A stretch of 39,111 nt of DNA from Caldilineaceae bacterium SB0662_bin_25. Lineage in GTDB: Bacteria; Chloroflexota; Anaerolineae; Caldilineales; Caldilineaceae. Location: contig VXOE01000230.1 of NCBI GenBank assembly GCA_009840225.1, positions 1-39,111 on the forward strand, read 5' to 3'. The translations under genes and the position numbers were made by a program. A model generated the notes under the pieces. That model searched no databases and had not been told where the DNA came from. It saw nothing but the letters and a program-made list of their open reading frames with translations. Shown piece by piece: positions 19,585 through 25,564 of this stretch (its first letter is position 1; every line of letters begins with the position of its first letter).

Positions 19585-19641
19585 CGGCAGCCGCGCTCTG
19601 CCGGCCTCCTACACGTTGCCGCAGAAGTTAAAGGAATGACA

Positions 19642-21015
19642 ATGGCGCTTCAGGTCAGTCAAGCCAAACAGATCGGTAGGTTCGGGACCAGTGTCGATTG
19701 GGCGCTGGCCACCGTCCTGACCTGCCTGATTCTGTTCGGGTCTGTCATGGTCTTCAGCGCCAGCTATCCCTGGGCGCTGGAAAACCAGGTATCCCCCTTC
19801 TATTACGTACTGCTGCAGCTCCGCTGGCTGGGGGTCGGCCTGGTGGCGCTGGTCGGCGCCGCAATTGTCCCCTACCGCATCTGGGAGCGGTGGAGCATAC
19901 CACTGATGGCCATAGGGCTGATCTCCCTGATTGCGGTCATCTTTCTTGGCGAAAGCCGTTTCGGCGCAACCCGTGCCTTCCCCGGCGGCCGCGTTCAGCC
20001 GAGTGAGCCGGTGAAAGTGATCGTACTCATCTACATCAGTACCTGGCTGGCCAGCAAAGGCGACCGAATCAAAGATATAAATTACGGCCTGATTCCCTTC
20101 GGCGTGCTCATGGGAATCGTGACGGGGCTCATCGTAGCCCAGCCGGATATCAGTACCACGATTCTGATTGTTGCCACCGCGCTGATCATCTTCTTTCTCG
20201 CCGGCGCCGAGTTGAAACAGCTTATCCTGGGCGGGTTTGTGGCCGCCGTCACCTTCTGGCTGGTGATCACCCGCAACAGCTATGCCAGCCGCCGCGTCAG
20301 TGCACTGCTTGAATCGATCCAGTCTCCCCTGAACAGCTCCGAATGGCAGATCCGCGAAGCCAGCCAGGCCATCGTCAAAGGAGGCCCGCTTGGCGTGGGG
20401 CTGGGCAACAGTACCGAAAAGTTGCCCGGAAATCTGCCCCTGAGCTGGTCGGACAATATCTTTGCAGTCATCGGCGAGGAGATGGGGTTGCTGGGCACGT
20501 TGCTGGTGATCCTCCTCTTCACGCTCTTTGTCTATCGAGGTCTGCGCATCGCCAGTGAATCGGCCGATATCTTCGGCTCCCTCCTGGCAGTGGGCATCAC
20601 CGCCCTTATCATCCTGCAGGCCATAATTCACATCGCGGTTGCGGTGGCCGTCGCGCCCCCTACCGGCGTAACACTGCCGTTCGTCAGCTTTGGCGGCAGT
20701 TCTCTGATTACGTCCATGGGCGCTGCCGGCATACTGCTGAACATCAGCCGATATCGCGGTCTGCCCCCGCCCGCCGCGCCCCGTCGCGGCGAAGCCGGCG
20801 GCCACCGTCACCCCTCGGCGGGCGACCGAATACGCGGCGGCCTGGCCAACGCTTTTGGCTCAAAAAAATCCGGGGCATCCTCTGGCCCCCCAGGGCAGAC
20901 AGCCCATGCGCCTTCTAATTTCGGGTGGTGGAACCGGGGGACACGTATATCCGGCTCTCGCCGTCGTCGAACAACTGCGAATCAACGCTCTGACCGCCGC
21001 GACCGCTCAGGGTAA
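19642..21015 (+). CDS. ftsW: Septal peptidoglycan polymerase FtsW (SEDS family)
   Basis: FtsW is the SEDS-family glycosyltransferase that polymerises lipid II at the septum with FtsI. The product is 457 residues with about ten membrane segments. Motifs include FSASYPWALE near the start, QPSEPVKVIVLIYIS, AQPDISTTILI, the EEMGLLGTLLVILLF helix and the PPTGVTLPFVSFGGSSLITSM block. The ATG at 19642 has AAAGGA six bases upstream and is preferred to 19636. The gene runs 110 bp into murG in another frame, giving FtsW an Arg/Ser-rich cytoplasmic tail of about 70 residues. FtsW rather than RodA is inferred from the dcw context. Confidence 0.93.
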   Translation: MALQVSQAKQIGRFGTSVDWALATVLTCLILFGSVMVFSASYPWALENQVSPFYYVLLQLRWLGVGLVALVGAAIVPYRIWERWSIPLMAIGLISLIAVIFLGESRFGATRAFPGGRVQPSEPVKVIVLIYISTWLASKGDRIKDINYGLIPFGVLMGIVTGLIVAQPDISTTILIVATALIIFFLAGAELKQLILGGFVAAVTFWLVITRNSYASRRVSALLESIQSPLNSSEWQIREASQAIVKGGPLGVGLGNSTEKLPGNLPLSWSDNIFAVIGEEMGLLGTLLVILLFTLFVYRGLRIASESADIFGSLLAVGITALIILQAIIHIAVAVAVAPPTGVTLPFVSFGGSSLITSMGAAGILLNISRYRGLPPPAAPRRGEAGGHRHPSAGDRIRGGLANAFGSKKSGASSGPPGQTAHAPSNFGWWNRGTRISGSRRRRTTANQRSDRRDRSG

Positions 21016-22048
21016 CCCCACCCTGTTGTGGCTGGGGAGCCGGACCGGCATCGAGCACCCTCTCGTGCAGGGCGCTGGCATCCCCTTCCACGACATTCAA
21101 AGCGGCGCGCTGCGAGGACGCAATCCATTCATGGCCTCACGTAATCTGGCCAAAGTGCTGGCGGGCATTAGCCAGTCTCTGCAGATTCTCGAAGATTTCC
21201 GGCCGCAGGCATGTTTTGCCACCGGCGGCTATGTCATGGCGCCGGTCGCCATAGCCTGTCGATTGCGTTCGGTGCCGGTCATGATCTATCTACCGGACAT
21301 GACCCCAGGGCTGGCGGTGCGCTGGCTCAGCCGCCTGGCCCAGCGGGTCGCGGTCAGCTTCCCCGAGGTGGCCGGCTTCTTCGGCCAGAAGGCGGTGGTC
21401 ACCGGTTACCCTGTGCGCGCCGGACTGCTCAACGCGCTTGCGGACAGACAGGCAGCCCGGCAGAAGCTGTCCCGGAAACTGGGATTGGAGTTGGAGGATC
21501 GACTGCCTCTGCTGCTTGTCTTCGGCGGCAGCCAGGGCGCGCGCACCATCAACAGGGCCGTCTGGCAGGCCGCGCCGGCCCTGTTGCCCGCCTGCCAGAT
21601 TCTGCACGTCATCGGGACGCGCGACTGGTCCCTGCTGGAACAGGAAGGGCCGGCGCTGTGGGATAGCCCACTAGCCTACCGCTATCACCCCGTCGCCTAT
21701 CTGCACGAGGAGATGGCCTGGGCGCTGGCCAGCGCGGACCTGGCGGTCGCCCGGGCCGGGGCCAGCGTGCTGGCCGAGTTTCCGCTGGCGCGCCTCCCGT
21801 CCGTACTCGCGCCTCTGCCCGGCGCCGGCTCCCACCAGCGCCCCAATGCACAGAAGCTGGCCGAATCCGGCGGCACGATCATCATCGAGGACGGACAACT
21901 GGCGCAAGAGCTGGAATCGACCATCGCGGCGCTCCTGGCCGATGAAAGTCGACGGCACGCCATGGGCGCGGCGGTCGGCGCCCTGGCCCGGCCGCAGGCC
22001 GCAGACAATATCGTGCGTGAACTTCAGCGGCTCGTCGCCCATGGCTAG
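20906..22048 (+). CDS. murG: Undecaprenyl-PP-MurNAc-pentapeptide GlcNAc transferase
   Basis: MurG adds GlcNAc to lipid I to form lipid II at the cytoplasmic membrane face. The 380-residue protein starts MRLLISGGGTGGHVYPALAV, the family's G-loop. It then shows FATGGYVMAP, LPDMTPGLAVR, VTGYPVR, LLVFGGSQGARTIN and the UDP-GlcNAc-site text ARAGASVLAEF. The start is fixed by the G-loop; the 17 extra residues in the ORF track are not conserved. The first 110 bp overlap ftsW, an unusually long overlap that suggests translational coupling or a ragged ftsW end. Confidence 0.96.
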   Translation: MRLLISGGGTGGHVYPALAVVEQLRINALTAATAQGNPTLLWLGSRTGIEHPLVQGAGIPFHDIQSGALRGRNPFMASRNLAKVLAGISQSLQILEDFRPQACFATGGYVMAPVAIACRLRSVPVMIYLPDMTPGLAVRWLSRLAQRVAVSFPEVAGFFGQKAVVTGYPVRAGLLNALADRQAARQKLSRKLGLELEDRLPLLLVFGGSQGARTINRAVWQAAPALLPACQILHVIGTRDWSLLEQEGPALWDSPLAYRYHPVAYLHEEMAWALASADLAVARAGASVLAEFPLARLPSVLAPLPGAGSHQRPNAQKLAESGGTIIIEDGQLAQELESTIAALLADESRRHAMGAAVGALARPQAADNIVRELQRLVAHG

Positions 22049-22155: not shown

Positions 22156-22833
22156 ATGAGTGAATCTACGCCAGGCACAGTTGCATTTGTATTCTACGTC
22201 CTCCTATTTGCTTGGGTCGGTTTCCGGCGGGGGCTGTTCAGAGAACTGTTGGTGCTCGTTGTCTCGGTCGGGGGTTTCTTCCTGCTGCAACAGAACCAGG
22301 GCCTGGCCCTGGAAATCGTCAGGCAGGTGTTGGGAATCGTCTTCGGTATCGTCGCTGTGGGCGCAAAGTTCCTGGCCTCGCTGGGTCAAGGGAGCGCGGG
22401 GGGAAATGGCGAACCGGTCTACACGCTCGGCCCCTCGGACTGGCTCTCCGATGCAGACCAGCCGACCGTATCTTTTCTCGTCTGGTCGGGGTTGTTGCTC
22501 TTTACCTACCTGCTGACCAATAAGGCGATCCCTGACAGCCTGAGTACGTCCGGTCTGCTCGCGGCCATGCTCGGCGTTGGCAACGGACTTTTCTACATTC
22601 CTACTTTTGCGCCGCGGCTGATGGCCTTCATCCCGGAGGTCGGGGTGACGTCGGTTTCATCCCCCGGCACGGGGATGGAGGGCCTTCTGCAAAGCGTGAC
22701 CGACATGATGCATTCCGGGTTTGGCGATCTCTGGGTGGCATTGGGGCCGCAACAGCCCATCCTGGCCGCGATTGCGTTGACGGTGCTGCTCGTGGCGGTG
22801 ATCAGCACCCTGCGCCGCGGCGGCCAGACCTGA
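22156..22833 (+). CDS. CvpA-like integral membrane protein 1
   Basis: This 225-residue protein has five or six hydrophobic segments (about residues 8-22, 31-45, 54-74, 105-120, 133-150 and 202-217). Its start, with WVGFRRGLFRELLVL at 20-34, resembles the N-terminal pattern of CvpA-family proteins, in which a short membrane helix is followed by GxxxGxxRE. The function of that family is largely undefined. An extra-membrane loop (75-104) and a second one (155-200) are Gly/Ser-rich. It lies 107 bp after murG and is followed by a second protein of similar pattern. Assignment to CvpA is tentative. It could equally be a lineage-specific dcw membrane protein. Confidence 0.6.
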   Translation: MSESTPGTVAFVFYVLLFAWVGFRRGLFRELLVLVVSVGGFFLLQQNQGLALEIVRQVLGIVFGIVAVGAKFLASLGQGSAGGNGEPVYTLGPSDWLSDADQPTVSFLVWSGLLLFTYLLTNKAIPDSLSTSGLLAAMLGVGNGLFYIPTFAPRLMAFIPEVGVTSVSSPGTGMEGLLQSVTDMMHSGFGDLWVALGPQQPILAAIALTVLLVAVISTLRRGGQT

Positions 22834-22901
22834 TCGAGCGCAAACCGGGCCATGCTGCGGTAAACCGCCATCCGCGAAACACGTCTGATTACTGAACCGT
22901 T

Positions 22902-23447
22902 ATGGGTCTGATCGAAGTTTACTTCGGGTCTATCGCCGGCATCATTACAATGATTGGCCTTGCCCAGGGTTATGCGCGCGAACTGGGCAGGTCCATGATC
23001 ATTATCGTCGCCATCTTTCTGCTGCTCTACGTCCAGGATCGTCTCAATCCGATCCTGGACAGTGTATGGCGCATGGTATTTTCGGCTGAGGATGTCGGCG
23101 CCCAGCAGCTGTTTCTGAGCAACTTCTACCTGGTCACCTTTGTCGTTATCATCTTTGCCGGCTATGCCGGACGGGTCATTACATTCAGTGGTCAGCAGTG
23201 GCCGATGCCCCAGGGCGCCATACTCAGCTGCCTGGTAGGCGCAATCAACGGCTACCTGATCAGTGGCAGCCTCTGGTATTACCAGCACATCTACGGGTAC
23301 CCCCTCGCTAACCTGGGATGGATTAATCCGGACCTGTCGCCGATCGCTACTGAGCTGGTGCGCTATCTGCCCCAGAATATCATGCCGTCACCAACGCCGT
23401 GGGTGATTCCCATCGCAATACTGCTGCTGATGCGGGTGCGCGGATGA
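22902..23447 (+). CDS. CvpA-like integral membrane protein 2
   Basis: This 181-residue protein has four or five membrane segments (about 7-21, 31-44, 73-90, 104-123 and 166-177). Its start carries GLAQGYARELGRSM (19-32), the same Gly/Arg-Glu pattern seen in the preceding gene, so the two may be diverged paralogues. It lies 68 bp after the first and its stop codon is only 10 bp before murC. It is therefore embedded in the wall-synthesis operon. No catalytic motif is visible. A role in organising membrane-bound precursor enzymes is conceivable but is inference only. Confidence 0.6.
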   Translation: MGLIEVYFGSIAGIITMIGLAQGYARELGRSMIIIVAIFLLLYVQDRLNPILDSVWRMVFSAEDVGAQQLFLSNFYLVTFVVIIFAGYAGRVITFSGQQWPMPQGAILSCLVGAINGYLISGSLWYYQHIYGYPLANLGWINPDLSPIATELVRYLPQNIMPSPTPWVIPIAILLLMRVRG

Positions 23448-23457
23448 GGGCGCAATT

Positions 23458-24993
23458 ATGAGGATACAAGGAGGAGAGTTGCACGCGCCCCGGCAGGAGG
23501 GCGGCGCAGCCATGGAGGCGGCGATGCCGGTTGACAGCTGGCAGGAGCGGTTACAAAAAGCGCTGGACCCGTCCCTGCCCGCGAAAGGCGGGGACGACAC
23601 GCGGCCGCGCGTGCATCTGATCGGGATAGGCGGTGCAGGCCTCTCCCCCATCGCCCACGTACTCTTGGAACAGGGTATACACGTCAGTGGCAGCGACCGC
23701 CAGGAGAGCGAGCGCACACGCCGGCTGGCTGCCGCCGGCGCGACAATCTTCGGGCGCCAGGGCGCGGCCGCAGAGCTCGGCGAGCTGCCCGATCGGGAAC
23801 GCCCCGACGTGGTCCTGATCAGCAGCGCCGTCGATGATACCAACCGCGAACGCCAGACCGCACAGAGGCTGGGGATTCCGGTCGTCAAGAGGGAGTCCTT
23901 TCTGCGGCCGCTGCTGGCCGGCCGCGACGTCATCGCTGTCTCCGGCACGCATGGTAAGAGCACGACGACCTCCATGATCGTACAGACGCTGCATGAAAGC
24001 GGCTGCGACGCTGGCTATATCATCGGCGCTGACCTGCCCGGATTCGGCAACGCCCACGCCGGCACCGCCCGCGCCTTCGTGATCGAAGCCGACGAGTATG
24101 ACCGCATGTTCCATGGGTTGACGCCGATGGCGGCGGTCGTGACCAATGTGGAGTGGGACCACCCCGACTGCTATCCGACGCCGTCCAGCTTTGTAGACGC
24201 CTTCCGTCAGTTTGTTGCGCAGGTGCGCGCCGAAGGATGCGTCGTCTCCTGCGGGGATGACCCCGGCGCGGAGGCGCTGCGCACAGAACGCCCAGCCGGG
24301 GGCGGCCCGGCCTGGCTGACCTATGGACTGCGGGAAGGATGCGACGTACGCGCCGCCGGTGAGACGGTCGAAACGGGCGGGGACTATGCAGCAGCAGTCC
24401 ACAGTGAAGGGGAGTCGATCGGACGCCTGCGGCTGCAGGCGCCGGGCATCCATAATCTGCGCAACGCCCTGGCCGCGCTGACCGTCGCCCGCCGCTTCGG
24501 CGTGCCGGCTGCACAGGCTCTGGCCAGTCTGCACCAATACACCGGCATTGGCCGGCGTTTTGAACTGAAGGGGACACGGGGAGGTGTGACGGTCATCGAC
24601 GACTACGCCCATCACCCCACTGAAATCCAGGCAACCCTGGCCGCGGCCCGCAGCCGCTTCGGCGAGCGGCGTATCTGGGCTGTTTTTCAGCCCCATACGT
24701 TCAGCCGCACCAGGGCGATGCTGCACAAGATCGCTTGCAGCTTCGACAACGCCGATACGGTACTGGTAACCGATATCTACGCCGCCCGGGAGAGCGGGGA
24801 CAATGCCATGGCCGCCGCCGAGGTCGCGGCCGCCAGCCACCACCCTTCGATCCGTCACAGCGGTGGCATCGAGGAGACGAGTTCGCTTCTCCACGACGAA
24901 GTCACCGCCGGCGACGTCGTCCTGACTCTGGGCGCAGGCACCAGCCACCGCATCGGTGAAACACTGCTGGAGAGACTGGGAACCGATGGCTGA
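23458..24993 (+). CDS. murC: UDP-MurNAc--L-alanine ligase
   Basis: MurC attaches L-alanine to UDP-MurNAc, the first peptide-stem step, 511 residues as drawn. It shows VHLIGIGGAGLSPIAHVL (UDP binding), the ATP loop VSGTHGKSTTTSMI, EADEYDRMF, VEWDHPDCYP and the C-terminal DDYAHHPTEI and FQPHTFSRT motifs. The start is uncertain. The ATG at 23458 has GAGGG seven bases upstream, but ATG 23512 also follows an AGGAGG and would trim a 50-residue N-terminus that precedes GIGGAG to about 32. The stop overlaps the next gene by 8 bp. Confidence 0.95.
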   Translation: MRIQGGELHAPRQEGGAAMEAAMPVDSWQERLQKALDPSLPAKGGDDTRPRVHLIGIGGAGLSPIAHVLLEQGIHVSGSDRQESERTRRLAAAGATIFGRQGAAAELGELPDRERPDVVLISSAVDDTNRERQTAQRLGIPVVKRESFLRPLLAGRDVIAVSGTHGKSTTTSMIVQTLHESGCDAGYIIGADLPGFGNAHAGTARAFVIEADEYDRMFHGLTPMAAVVTNVEWDHPDCYPTPSSFVDAFRQFVAQVRAEGCVVSCGDDPGAEALRTERPAGGGPAWLTYGLREGCDVRAAGETVETGGDYAAAVHSEGESIGRLRLQAPGIHNLRNALAALTVARRFGVPAAQALASLHQYTGIGRRFELKGTRGGVTVIDDYAHHPTEIQATLAAARSRFGERRIWAVFQPHTFSRTRAMLHKIACSFDNADTVLVTDIYAARESGDNAMAAAEVAAASHHPSIRHSGGIEETSSLLHDEVTAGDVVLTLGAGTSHRIGETLLERLGTDG

Positions 24994-25564
24994 AAGGGGG
25001 AATGTGCTACCGCTCGTCCTGATCGTATGCGGGGCGCCGGGAACCGGAAAAACGACGCTGGCCCGCAAACTGGCTCCCCCTCTGCGTCTTCCCTTGATCG
25101 CACGCGACGATCTAAAGGAGTCGCTCTTCGAGACCCTGGGCTGGTCAACGGTGGAGTGGTCGCAGCGGCTGGGCGGGGCAACTTATGAATTGGTCTATCT
25201 ACTGATCGAACGCCTGCTGGAGGCACGCTGCTCGCTGCTCGTGGAGTCCCCCTTCGATCCGGACTGGGCCAACCCGCGCTTCCAGGCATTGCAGGCGCGC
25301 CACCCCTTCCAGCCGGCGCAGGTCTTCCTTTCCACCCAAGACGACCTGCTGCGCCAGCGCTACGCCCAGCGGGTGGACAACGGCGAACGGCACCCAGGCC
25401 ATGTGGACCGGCTGCGGATGGGCGAGTTCGACACGGTCGAGTTGGCGCGGCGCAACCGTCCCCTGGACCTGGACGGGCCTGTATTTCACGTCGACACCAC
25501 TGATTTCGCGTCGCTGGATTTCGATAGCCTGGTAAAACAGCTGCACACCTTACGAGGAATCTGA
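24986..25564 (+). CDS. Small P-loop kinase / AAA_33-type ATP-binding protein
   Basis: This 192-residue protein is not a standard dcw member. It has a Walker A loop GAPGTGKTT at 16-24, an ARDDLKESL segment at 39-47, and LLVESPF at 84-90 as a probable Walker B-like strand. A basic lid-like region follows (RQRYAQR, then ERHPGH, about 123-139). This is the layout of AAA_33/zeta-toxin-like small-molecule kinases. Its ATG overlaps the murC stop by 8 bp and murB starts 7 bp after it, so it is translationally coupled into the wall operon. The substrate is unknown. A sugar or nucleotide-sugar of the murein path is a fair guess from context only. No antitoxin-like partner is seen. Confidence 0.75.
   Translation: MAERGNVLPLVLIVCGAPGTGKTTLARKLAPPLRLPLIARDDLKESLFETLGWSTVEWSQRLGGATYELVYLLIERLLEARCSLLVESPFDPDWANPRFQALQARHPFQPAQVFLSTQDDLLRQRYAQRVDNGERHPGHVDRLRMGEFDTVELARRNRPLDLDGPVFHVDTTDFASLDFDSLVKQLHTLRGI

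What the first reader, a model, noticed from the sequence alone, without database searches (positions are those of the whole stretch)
22156..23447. Two CvpA-like membrane proteins embedded between murG and murC
Neither gene belongs to the textbook dcw set, yet both sit tightly inside the wall-precursor operon; the second ends 10 bp before murC. Both open with a short hydrophobic segment and a Gly/Arg-Glu pattern (GFRRGLFREL and GLAQGYAREL), suggesting paralogues that may form a hetero-complex. A role in lipid II handling, or as a membrane scaffold for MraY, MurG and MurC, is inference from position only. These are the best candidates in the window for undescribed division or wall factors.
Basis: partly seen in the sequence, partly recalled or inferred. 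Interest (0 to 1): 0.62.

Follow-up and report, generated by a model that had tools for sequence, protein, structure and literature searches.

The report
Wall-operon CvpA-like membrane protein pair
Two related small membrane proteins of unknown function sit between the cell-wall genes murG and murC in this Caldilineaceae bacterium and, as a pair or a single copy, in nearly all Anaerolineae and many other Chloroflexota, which makes them good candidates for an overlooked part of bacterial wall building.

Summary
X (22156-22833, 225 aa) and Y (22902-23447, 181 aa) are real genes under purifying selection (dN/dS 0.14-0.23 and 0.04-0.10) between murG and murC. They are paralogues (profile-profile E 4.8e-12). 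Both are remote members of the CvpA/Colicin_V superfamily: neither passes Pfam's cut-off alone, but relatives tie them to it. The adjacent pair occurs in 38 of 46 Caldilineaceae genomes; four of the rest keep one divergent copy, and the other four have a broken or missing murC contig. At least one such gene lies between murG and murC in 37 of 38 sampled Anaerolineae. A single copy precedes murC in ten other Chloroflexota families sampled. On a tree with canonical CvpA, the wall-operon genes form one separate clade. Y is an Anaerolineae branch, and a second, independent duplication inside it rebuilt a pair elsewhere. Predicted architecture is five transmembrane helices, N-out/C-in; no solved structure resembles them. 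Most likely they form a hetero-oligomeric membrane factor serving the lipid II steps. The wall role and the complex remain inference from position, selection and rate covariation. I found no description of this subfamily in the open papers searched. Rated a new variant of a known kind.

The parts
22156..22833 (+). X: 225-aa predicted 5-TM membrane protein, divergent CvpA-like; motif GxRRGxxREL after TM1, GxxNG in TM4, C-terminal basic tail
   Evidence: ORF; conserved in 38/46 family genomes; dN/dS 0.14-0.23; relatives hit PF02674 in 34/48, best 6.6e-16; AlphaFold2 pLDDT 78.5, pTM 0.62
22902..23447 (+). Y: 181-aa predicted 5-TM membrane protein, CvpA-like paralogue of X; motifs RGYxxELG, NGYLxxGxLWYY, YP, LP, C-terminal RVRG
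   Evidence: ORF; PF02674 E 4.3e-4, 20.7 bits; conserved next to X in 38/46; dN/dS 0.035-0.098; relatives hit PF02674 in 33/43; AlphaFold2 pLDDT 91.7, pTM 0.87
20855..22048 (+). murG, upstream neighbour (ORF from the first TTG; true start probably a little downstream)
   Evidence: Pfam Glyco_transf_28 and Glyco_tran_28_C
23458..24993 (+). murC, downstream neighbour; start uncertain (ATG 23458, or TTG 23479 after an AGGAGG)
   Evidence: three Mur ligase domains, first from residue 52
19636..21015 (+). ftsW, overlapping the murG ORF; part of the conserved block murD-ftsW-murG-X-Y-murC
   Evidence: Pfam FTSW_RODA_SPOVE 3.6e-83; block conserved

Best explanation
X and Y are two anciently diverged paralogues of a CvpA-superfamily membrane protein that took up residence in the division and cell-wall (dcw) cluster of Chloroflexota. 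Shown: remote CvpA relationship, paralogy, conserved position, purifying selection, a single clade apart from the canonical CvpA sampled, and a predicted five-helix N-out/C-in topology. Inferred: X and Y pack against each other through the glycine-rich GxxNG helix and form a hetero-oligomer in the cytoplasmic membrane. The conserved Arg/Glu loop (RGxxxEL) on the cytoplasmic side would meet a peripheral or membrane enzyme of the pathway (MurG, MraY or FtsW), and the conserved outer loop (YP...LP in Y) would face the side where lipid II is used. The complex would help or regulate the membrane steps of lipid II supply. Lineages with one copy would use a homo-oligomer.
For: Both genes are adjacent in 38/46 family genomes, in the order murD-ftsW-murG-X-Y-murC-(kinase)-murB-ddl in the family loci inspected. 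One or two membrane ORFs fill the murG-murC gap in all 155 loci parsed that have both genes (loci were fetched through X or Y and many are near-duplicates), in 37/38 sampled class genomes, and one precedes murC in ten other families. Profile comparisons: X-Y 4.8e-12, Y-singles 1.5e-25, X-singles 5.5e-25; canonical Chloroflexota CvpA against X 1.6e-7, Y 1.2e-5, singles 8.2e-10. dcw-type and canonical genes separate at SH-aLRT 99. A second, independent duplication restored a pair (100/100). X-Y has the highest partial distance correlation of ten gene pairs, 0.51. Positive-inside charges fit N-out/C-in. In Agrobacterium, cvpA insertions are synthetically lethal with loss of LD-transpeptidases, a wall-related genetic link for a canonical relative (PMC11527210).
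Against: No direct functional evidence. Many Chloroflexota with murG and murC have no such gene between them, so it is not essential to lipid II synthesis in the phylum. X is fast-evolving and in places hard to align. Canonical CvpA is kept by genomes of family f19 in which no murC was found, so the superfamily as a whole is not tied to peptidoglycan. The rate covariation is only modestly above murG-murC and ftsW-murC (0.42 each).
Confidence: 0.5

Rival explanations
1. X and Y are simply this lineage's ordinary CvpA, a small-solute or amphiphile exporter of the inner membrane, relocated into the wall operon; the position reflects expression needs rather than a wall role.
For: The window genome has no canonical PF02674 gene over cut-off; its best PF02674 place is Y itself. 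E. coli cvpA loss gives deoxycholate sensitivity without a general envelope defect, and Pfam is reported to place the family in the LysE transporter clan (PMC6705877).
Against: Several Chloroflexota have both: a canonical CvpA elsewhere and a dcw-type copy before murC (G163, G155, G057, G195, G333, G133), and the two kinds form separate clades (SH-aLRT 99). A relocated housekeeping copy does not predict that.
Confidence: 0.25
2. A dedicated lipid-carrier transporter: X-Y flips undecaprenyl phosphate or a lipid-linked wall intermediate across the membrane, alongside or instead of known flippases.
For: Membrane protein with polar residues conserved near TM1 and in TM4 (E27, N116 in Y) next to murG and ftsW. 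Position only.
Against: No similarity to known flippases in Pfam or in solved structures. Many relatives with the same pathway lack the gene.
Confidence: 0.12
3. Passengers: membrane genes kept between murG and murC by operon inertia, with an unrelated membrane function.
For: dcw synteny is generally strong, so any inserted gene may be carried along. The nearby P-loop kinase is a less constant example.
Against: Found across many genera and in ten families outside the class, while the kinase comes and goes. Persists where murG has left the neighbourhood (ftsW-X-murC in L168, L170, L206). A pair was regained by a second duplication.
Confidence: 0.13

Closest known systems
CvpA / Colicin V production protein (Pfam PF02674)
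   Same: Superfamily match through relatives; 4-5 TM helices; basic-Gly...Glu motif after TM1 and a glycine-rich TM4
   Different: Below the Pfam cut-off in the window; separate clade from the phylum's canonical CvpA sampled; Asn in GxxNG; longer C-terminal part with a fifth TM; dcw location; duplicated to X and Y
Single CvpA-like gene before murC in other Chloroflexota (e.g. G163, whose contig length suggests Chloroflexus aurantiacus J-10-fl; the name is my inference)
   Same: Same position and clade; scores against the X profile
   Different: One copy only; no Y-type partner
MarP-type proteins (CvpA-like membrane domain plus serine protease; Colicin_V is listed among domains co-existing with serine proteases in PMC2605481)
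   Same: CvpA-type membrane domain (own knowledge for MarP)
   Different: X and Y have no protease or other soluble domain
Textbook dcw membrane proteins (MraY, FtsW, FtsQ)
   Same: Same operon
   Different: No sequence relation; X and Y are not in the 17-gene dcw set of PMC8871954

Membership tests
CvpA/Colicin_V (PF02674) | Profile score over the curated cut-off (29.3 bits) | tested here: not met
   X 10.5 bits, Y 20.7 bits
CvpA/Colicin_V (PF02674) | Superfamily homology shown through relatives | tested here: met
   PF02674 is matched (E up to 1) by 34/48 X-position, 33/43 Y-position and 34/37 single relatives, best 6.6e-16; the next families match at most 2, 5 and 2 members. Canonical CvpA profile against X 1.6e-7, Y 1.2e-5
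CvpA/Colicin_V (PF02674) | 4-5 transmembrane helices | tested here: met
   AlphaFold2 helices and positive-inside charge counts
CvpA/Colicin_V (PF02674) | Falls inside the canonical CvpA clade | tested here: not met
   Separate clade, SH-aLRT 99, with 12 canonical Chloroflexota sequences as outgroup
CvpA/Colicin_V (PF02674) | Function in colicin V export or bile-salt resistance | not testable with these tools
   Described for enterobacteria and Vibrio in PMC6705877
MarP-like CvpA-protease | C-terminal serine protease domain | tested here: not met
   No such domain in Pfam scans; proteins are 181 and 225 aa
X and Y as paralogues | Significant profile similarity in register | tested here: met
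   hhalign E 4.8e-12 over TM1 to TM4
Known unrelated transporter family | Significant match to a transporter model or fold | tested here: not met
   No Pfam/NCBIfam transporter match for the window proteins; no PDB fold match at E<=0.001

The most novel reading that the evidence does not exclude
X and Y form an obligate hetero-oligomer that is a previously unrecognised core accessory of the lipid II membrane machinery in Chloroflexota, a clade-specific gain to a gene cluster thought to have only lost or moved genes.
Probability: 0.25. Interest if true: 0.8.

Novelty: new variant of a known kind. Interest (0 to 1): 0.55.

Why it matters
The dcw cluster is among the most conserved bacterial operons, and a 2022 analysis concluded it has mainly lost or moved genes with likely no gain (PMC8871954). 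A CvpA-type gene settled there across much of a phylum and duplicated into a pair is a counter-example. It also offers a functional handle on CvpA, a widespread family whose molecular role is not established, and on wall building in Chloroflexota, where even the number of membranes is debated.

Tried and rejected
Absence in genus g2 and in G022/G024/G027/G041: not simple loss.

Full report
Observation. The window is contig C6 of a genome in the family of the Caldilineaceae records found by close protein match (Anaerolineae, Chloroflexota). Gaps are 107, 68 and 10 bp. The last depends on the murC start, for which a TTG at 23479 preceded by AGGAGG is a good alternative. Both genes are under purifying selection, Y strongly (dN/dS 0.035-0.098), X less so (0.14-0.23).

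Identity. Alone, Y touches the Colicin_V model (PF02674) at E 4.3e-4 (20.7 bits, cut-off 29.3) and X hardly does (10.5 bits). NCBIfam gives nothing useful. Relatives from the same position make the case. PF02674 is by far the most frequent family in scans at E up to 1: 34/48 X-position (best 6.6e-16), 33/43 Y-position (1.4e-7) and 34/37 single-copy proteins (6.1e-10), against at most 5 members for any other family. Profile-profile comparison links X with Y (4.8e-12), and both with the single-copy proteins (5.5e-25, 1.5e-25). Twelve canonical CvpA proteins of the phylum link to X (1.6e-7), Y (1.2e-5) and the singles (8.2e-10). I therefore call X and Y remote members of the CvpA superfamily and paralogues of each other. 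I do not file them as typical CvpA: the cut-off is not met, and they lie outside the canonical clade.

Distribution. In the family, X and Y are both found, adjacent, in 38 of 46 genomes, within the block murD-ftsW-murG-X-Y-murC-(kinase)-murB-ddl. Of the remaining eight, four (genus g2) have one divergent copy in the gap, matching the X profile at E about 1e-13, and four have murC at a contig end or missing. In the class, 37 of 38 sampled genomes have at least one membrane gene between murG and murC; G221 is the exception. Three of these (G189, G197, G335) were judged from hit positions next to murC rather than from fetched loci. Outside the class, one locus from each of about 40 other families was inspected, more in a few. 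Ten families (f23, f24, f31, f34, f49, f50, f63, f65, f78, f81) have a single CvpA-like gene directly before murC. In the others murG or ftsW is followed directly by murC, or no such gene was recognised. Taxon names of G handles are withheld. From contig lengths I infer that G163 is Chloroflexus aurantiacus J-10-fl and G155 Herpetosiphon aurantiacus; that is memory, not a test. Litorilinea aerophila carries the pair (L108).

History. On a tree of 128 dcw-type proteins, X-position and Y-position proteins fall on two sides, and the single copies of Anaerolineales lie with Y. With canonical CvpA as outgroup, all dcw-type proteins form one clade (SH-aLRT 99). Inside it, Y plus the Anaerolineales singles form a clade (98), and X groups with most singles from other classes (88). 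The simplest reading is one entry of a CvpA-type gene into the dcw cluster of Chloroflexota, a duplication giving Y in or before Anaerolineae, and loss of X in Anaerolineales. In another lineage (L062, L149, L156) a Y-type gene duplicated again, giving a second, independent pair (100/100; 99). Branches are long, the second tree is a short search with 12 outgroup sequences, and several deep forks are open, so the order of events is provisional.

Structure. AlphaFold2 gives a confident model for Y (pLDDT 91.7, pTM 0.87) and a moderate one for X (78.5, 0.62). Hydrophobicity and the predicted helices fit five transmembrane segments. Charges are positive in the TM1-TM2 loop, the TM3-TM4 loop and the C-terminus, which gives N-out/C-in. 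Conserved features are R/G/E after TM1, GxxNG in TM4, and in Y an outer YP...LP region and a C-terminal RVRG. Neither model matches a solved structure, and no PDB sequence is related.

Function. Known facts about canonical CvpA are few: deoxycholate resistance and a suggested export role in enteric bacteria (PMC6705877; repeated in PMC12173739), and synthetic lethality with loss of LD-transpeptidases in Agrobacterium (PMC11527210). The last links the family to the wall. Against a general wall role, canonical CvpA is retained in genomes of family f19 where no murC was found; Dehalococcoidales are reported to have lost the dcw genes (PMC10608941). The dcw-type and the canonical type therefore behave differently. 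For the dcw type, conserved position, coexistence with a separate canonical CvpA in several genomes, persistence next to murC even where murG has moved away, and regain of a pair favour a role in the pathway. Rate covariation gives X-Y the highest partial correlation of ten gene pairs (0.51; next murG-murC and ftsW-murC, 0.42), which is suggestive only.

Verdict. A real, conserved and apparently undescribed feature: a dcw-resident CvpA subfamily, duplicated to a pair. Searches of open papers for CvpA with peptidoglycan, cell division, cell wall, undecaprenyl or Anaerolineae murG operons gave no description of it, but subscription papers and preprints were not searched. Mechanism remains inference; complex modelling and a deletion in a cultured relative would settle most of it.

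Noticed in passing
24956-25564 (+): A 202-aa P-loop kinase (PF13671 E 1.2e-14; Zeta_toxin PF06414 27.0 bits, over its 22.3 cut-off) sits between murC and murB and recurs there in several other Caldilineaceae (L031, L033, L047, L050). Zeta toxins phosphorylate UDP-GlcNAc (own knowledge), so a wall-precursor kinase or regulator here would be worth testing.
   Followed up: partly
L164 (G221): The one sampled Anaerolineae genome with murG followed directly by murC and no CvpA-like gene between them; useful for asking what replaces it.
   Followed up: no
L062, L149, L156: A second, independent tandem duplication within the Y lineage restores two CvpA-like genes between murG and murC.
   Followed up: yes
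L168, L170, L206: The CvpA-like gene directly follows ftsW and precedes murC where murG is no longer in the interval.
   Followed up: partly
window 23458-23520: The murC start is ambiguous: ATG 23458 is followed by an AGGAGG and a TTG at 23479, with another ATG at 23512, and the conserved domain starts only at residue 52.
   Followed up: partly
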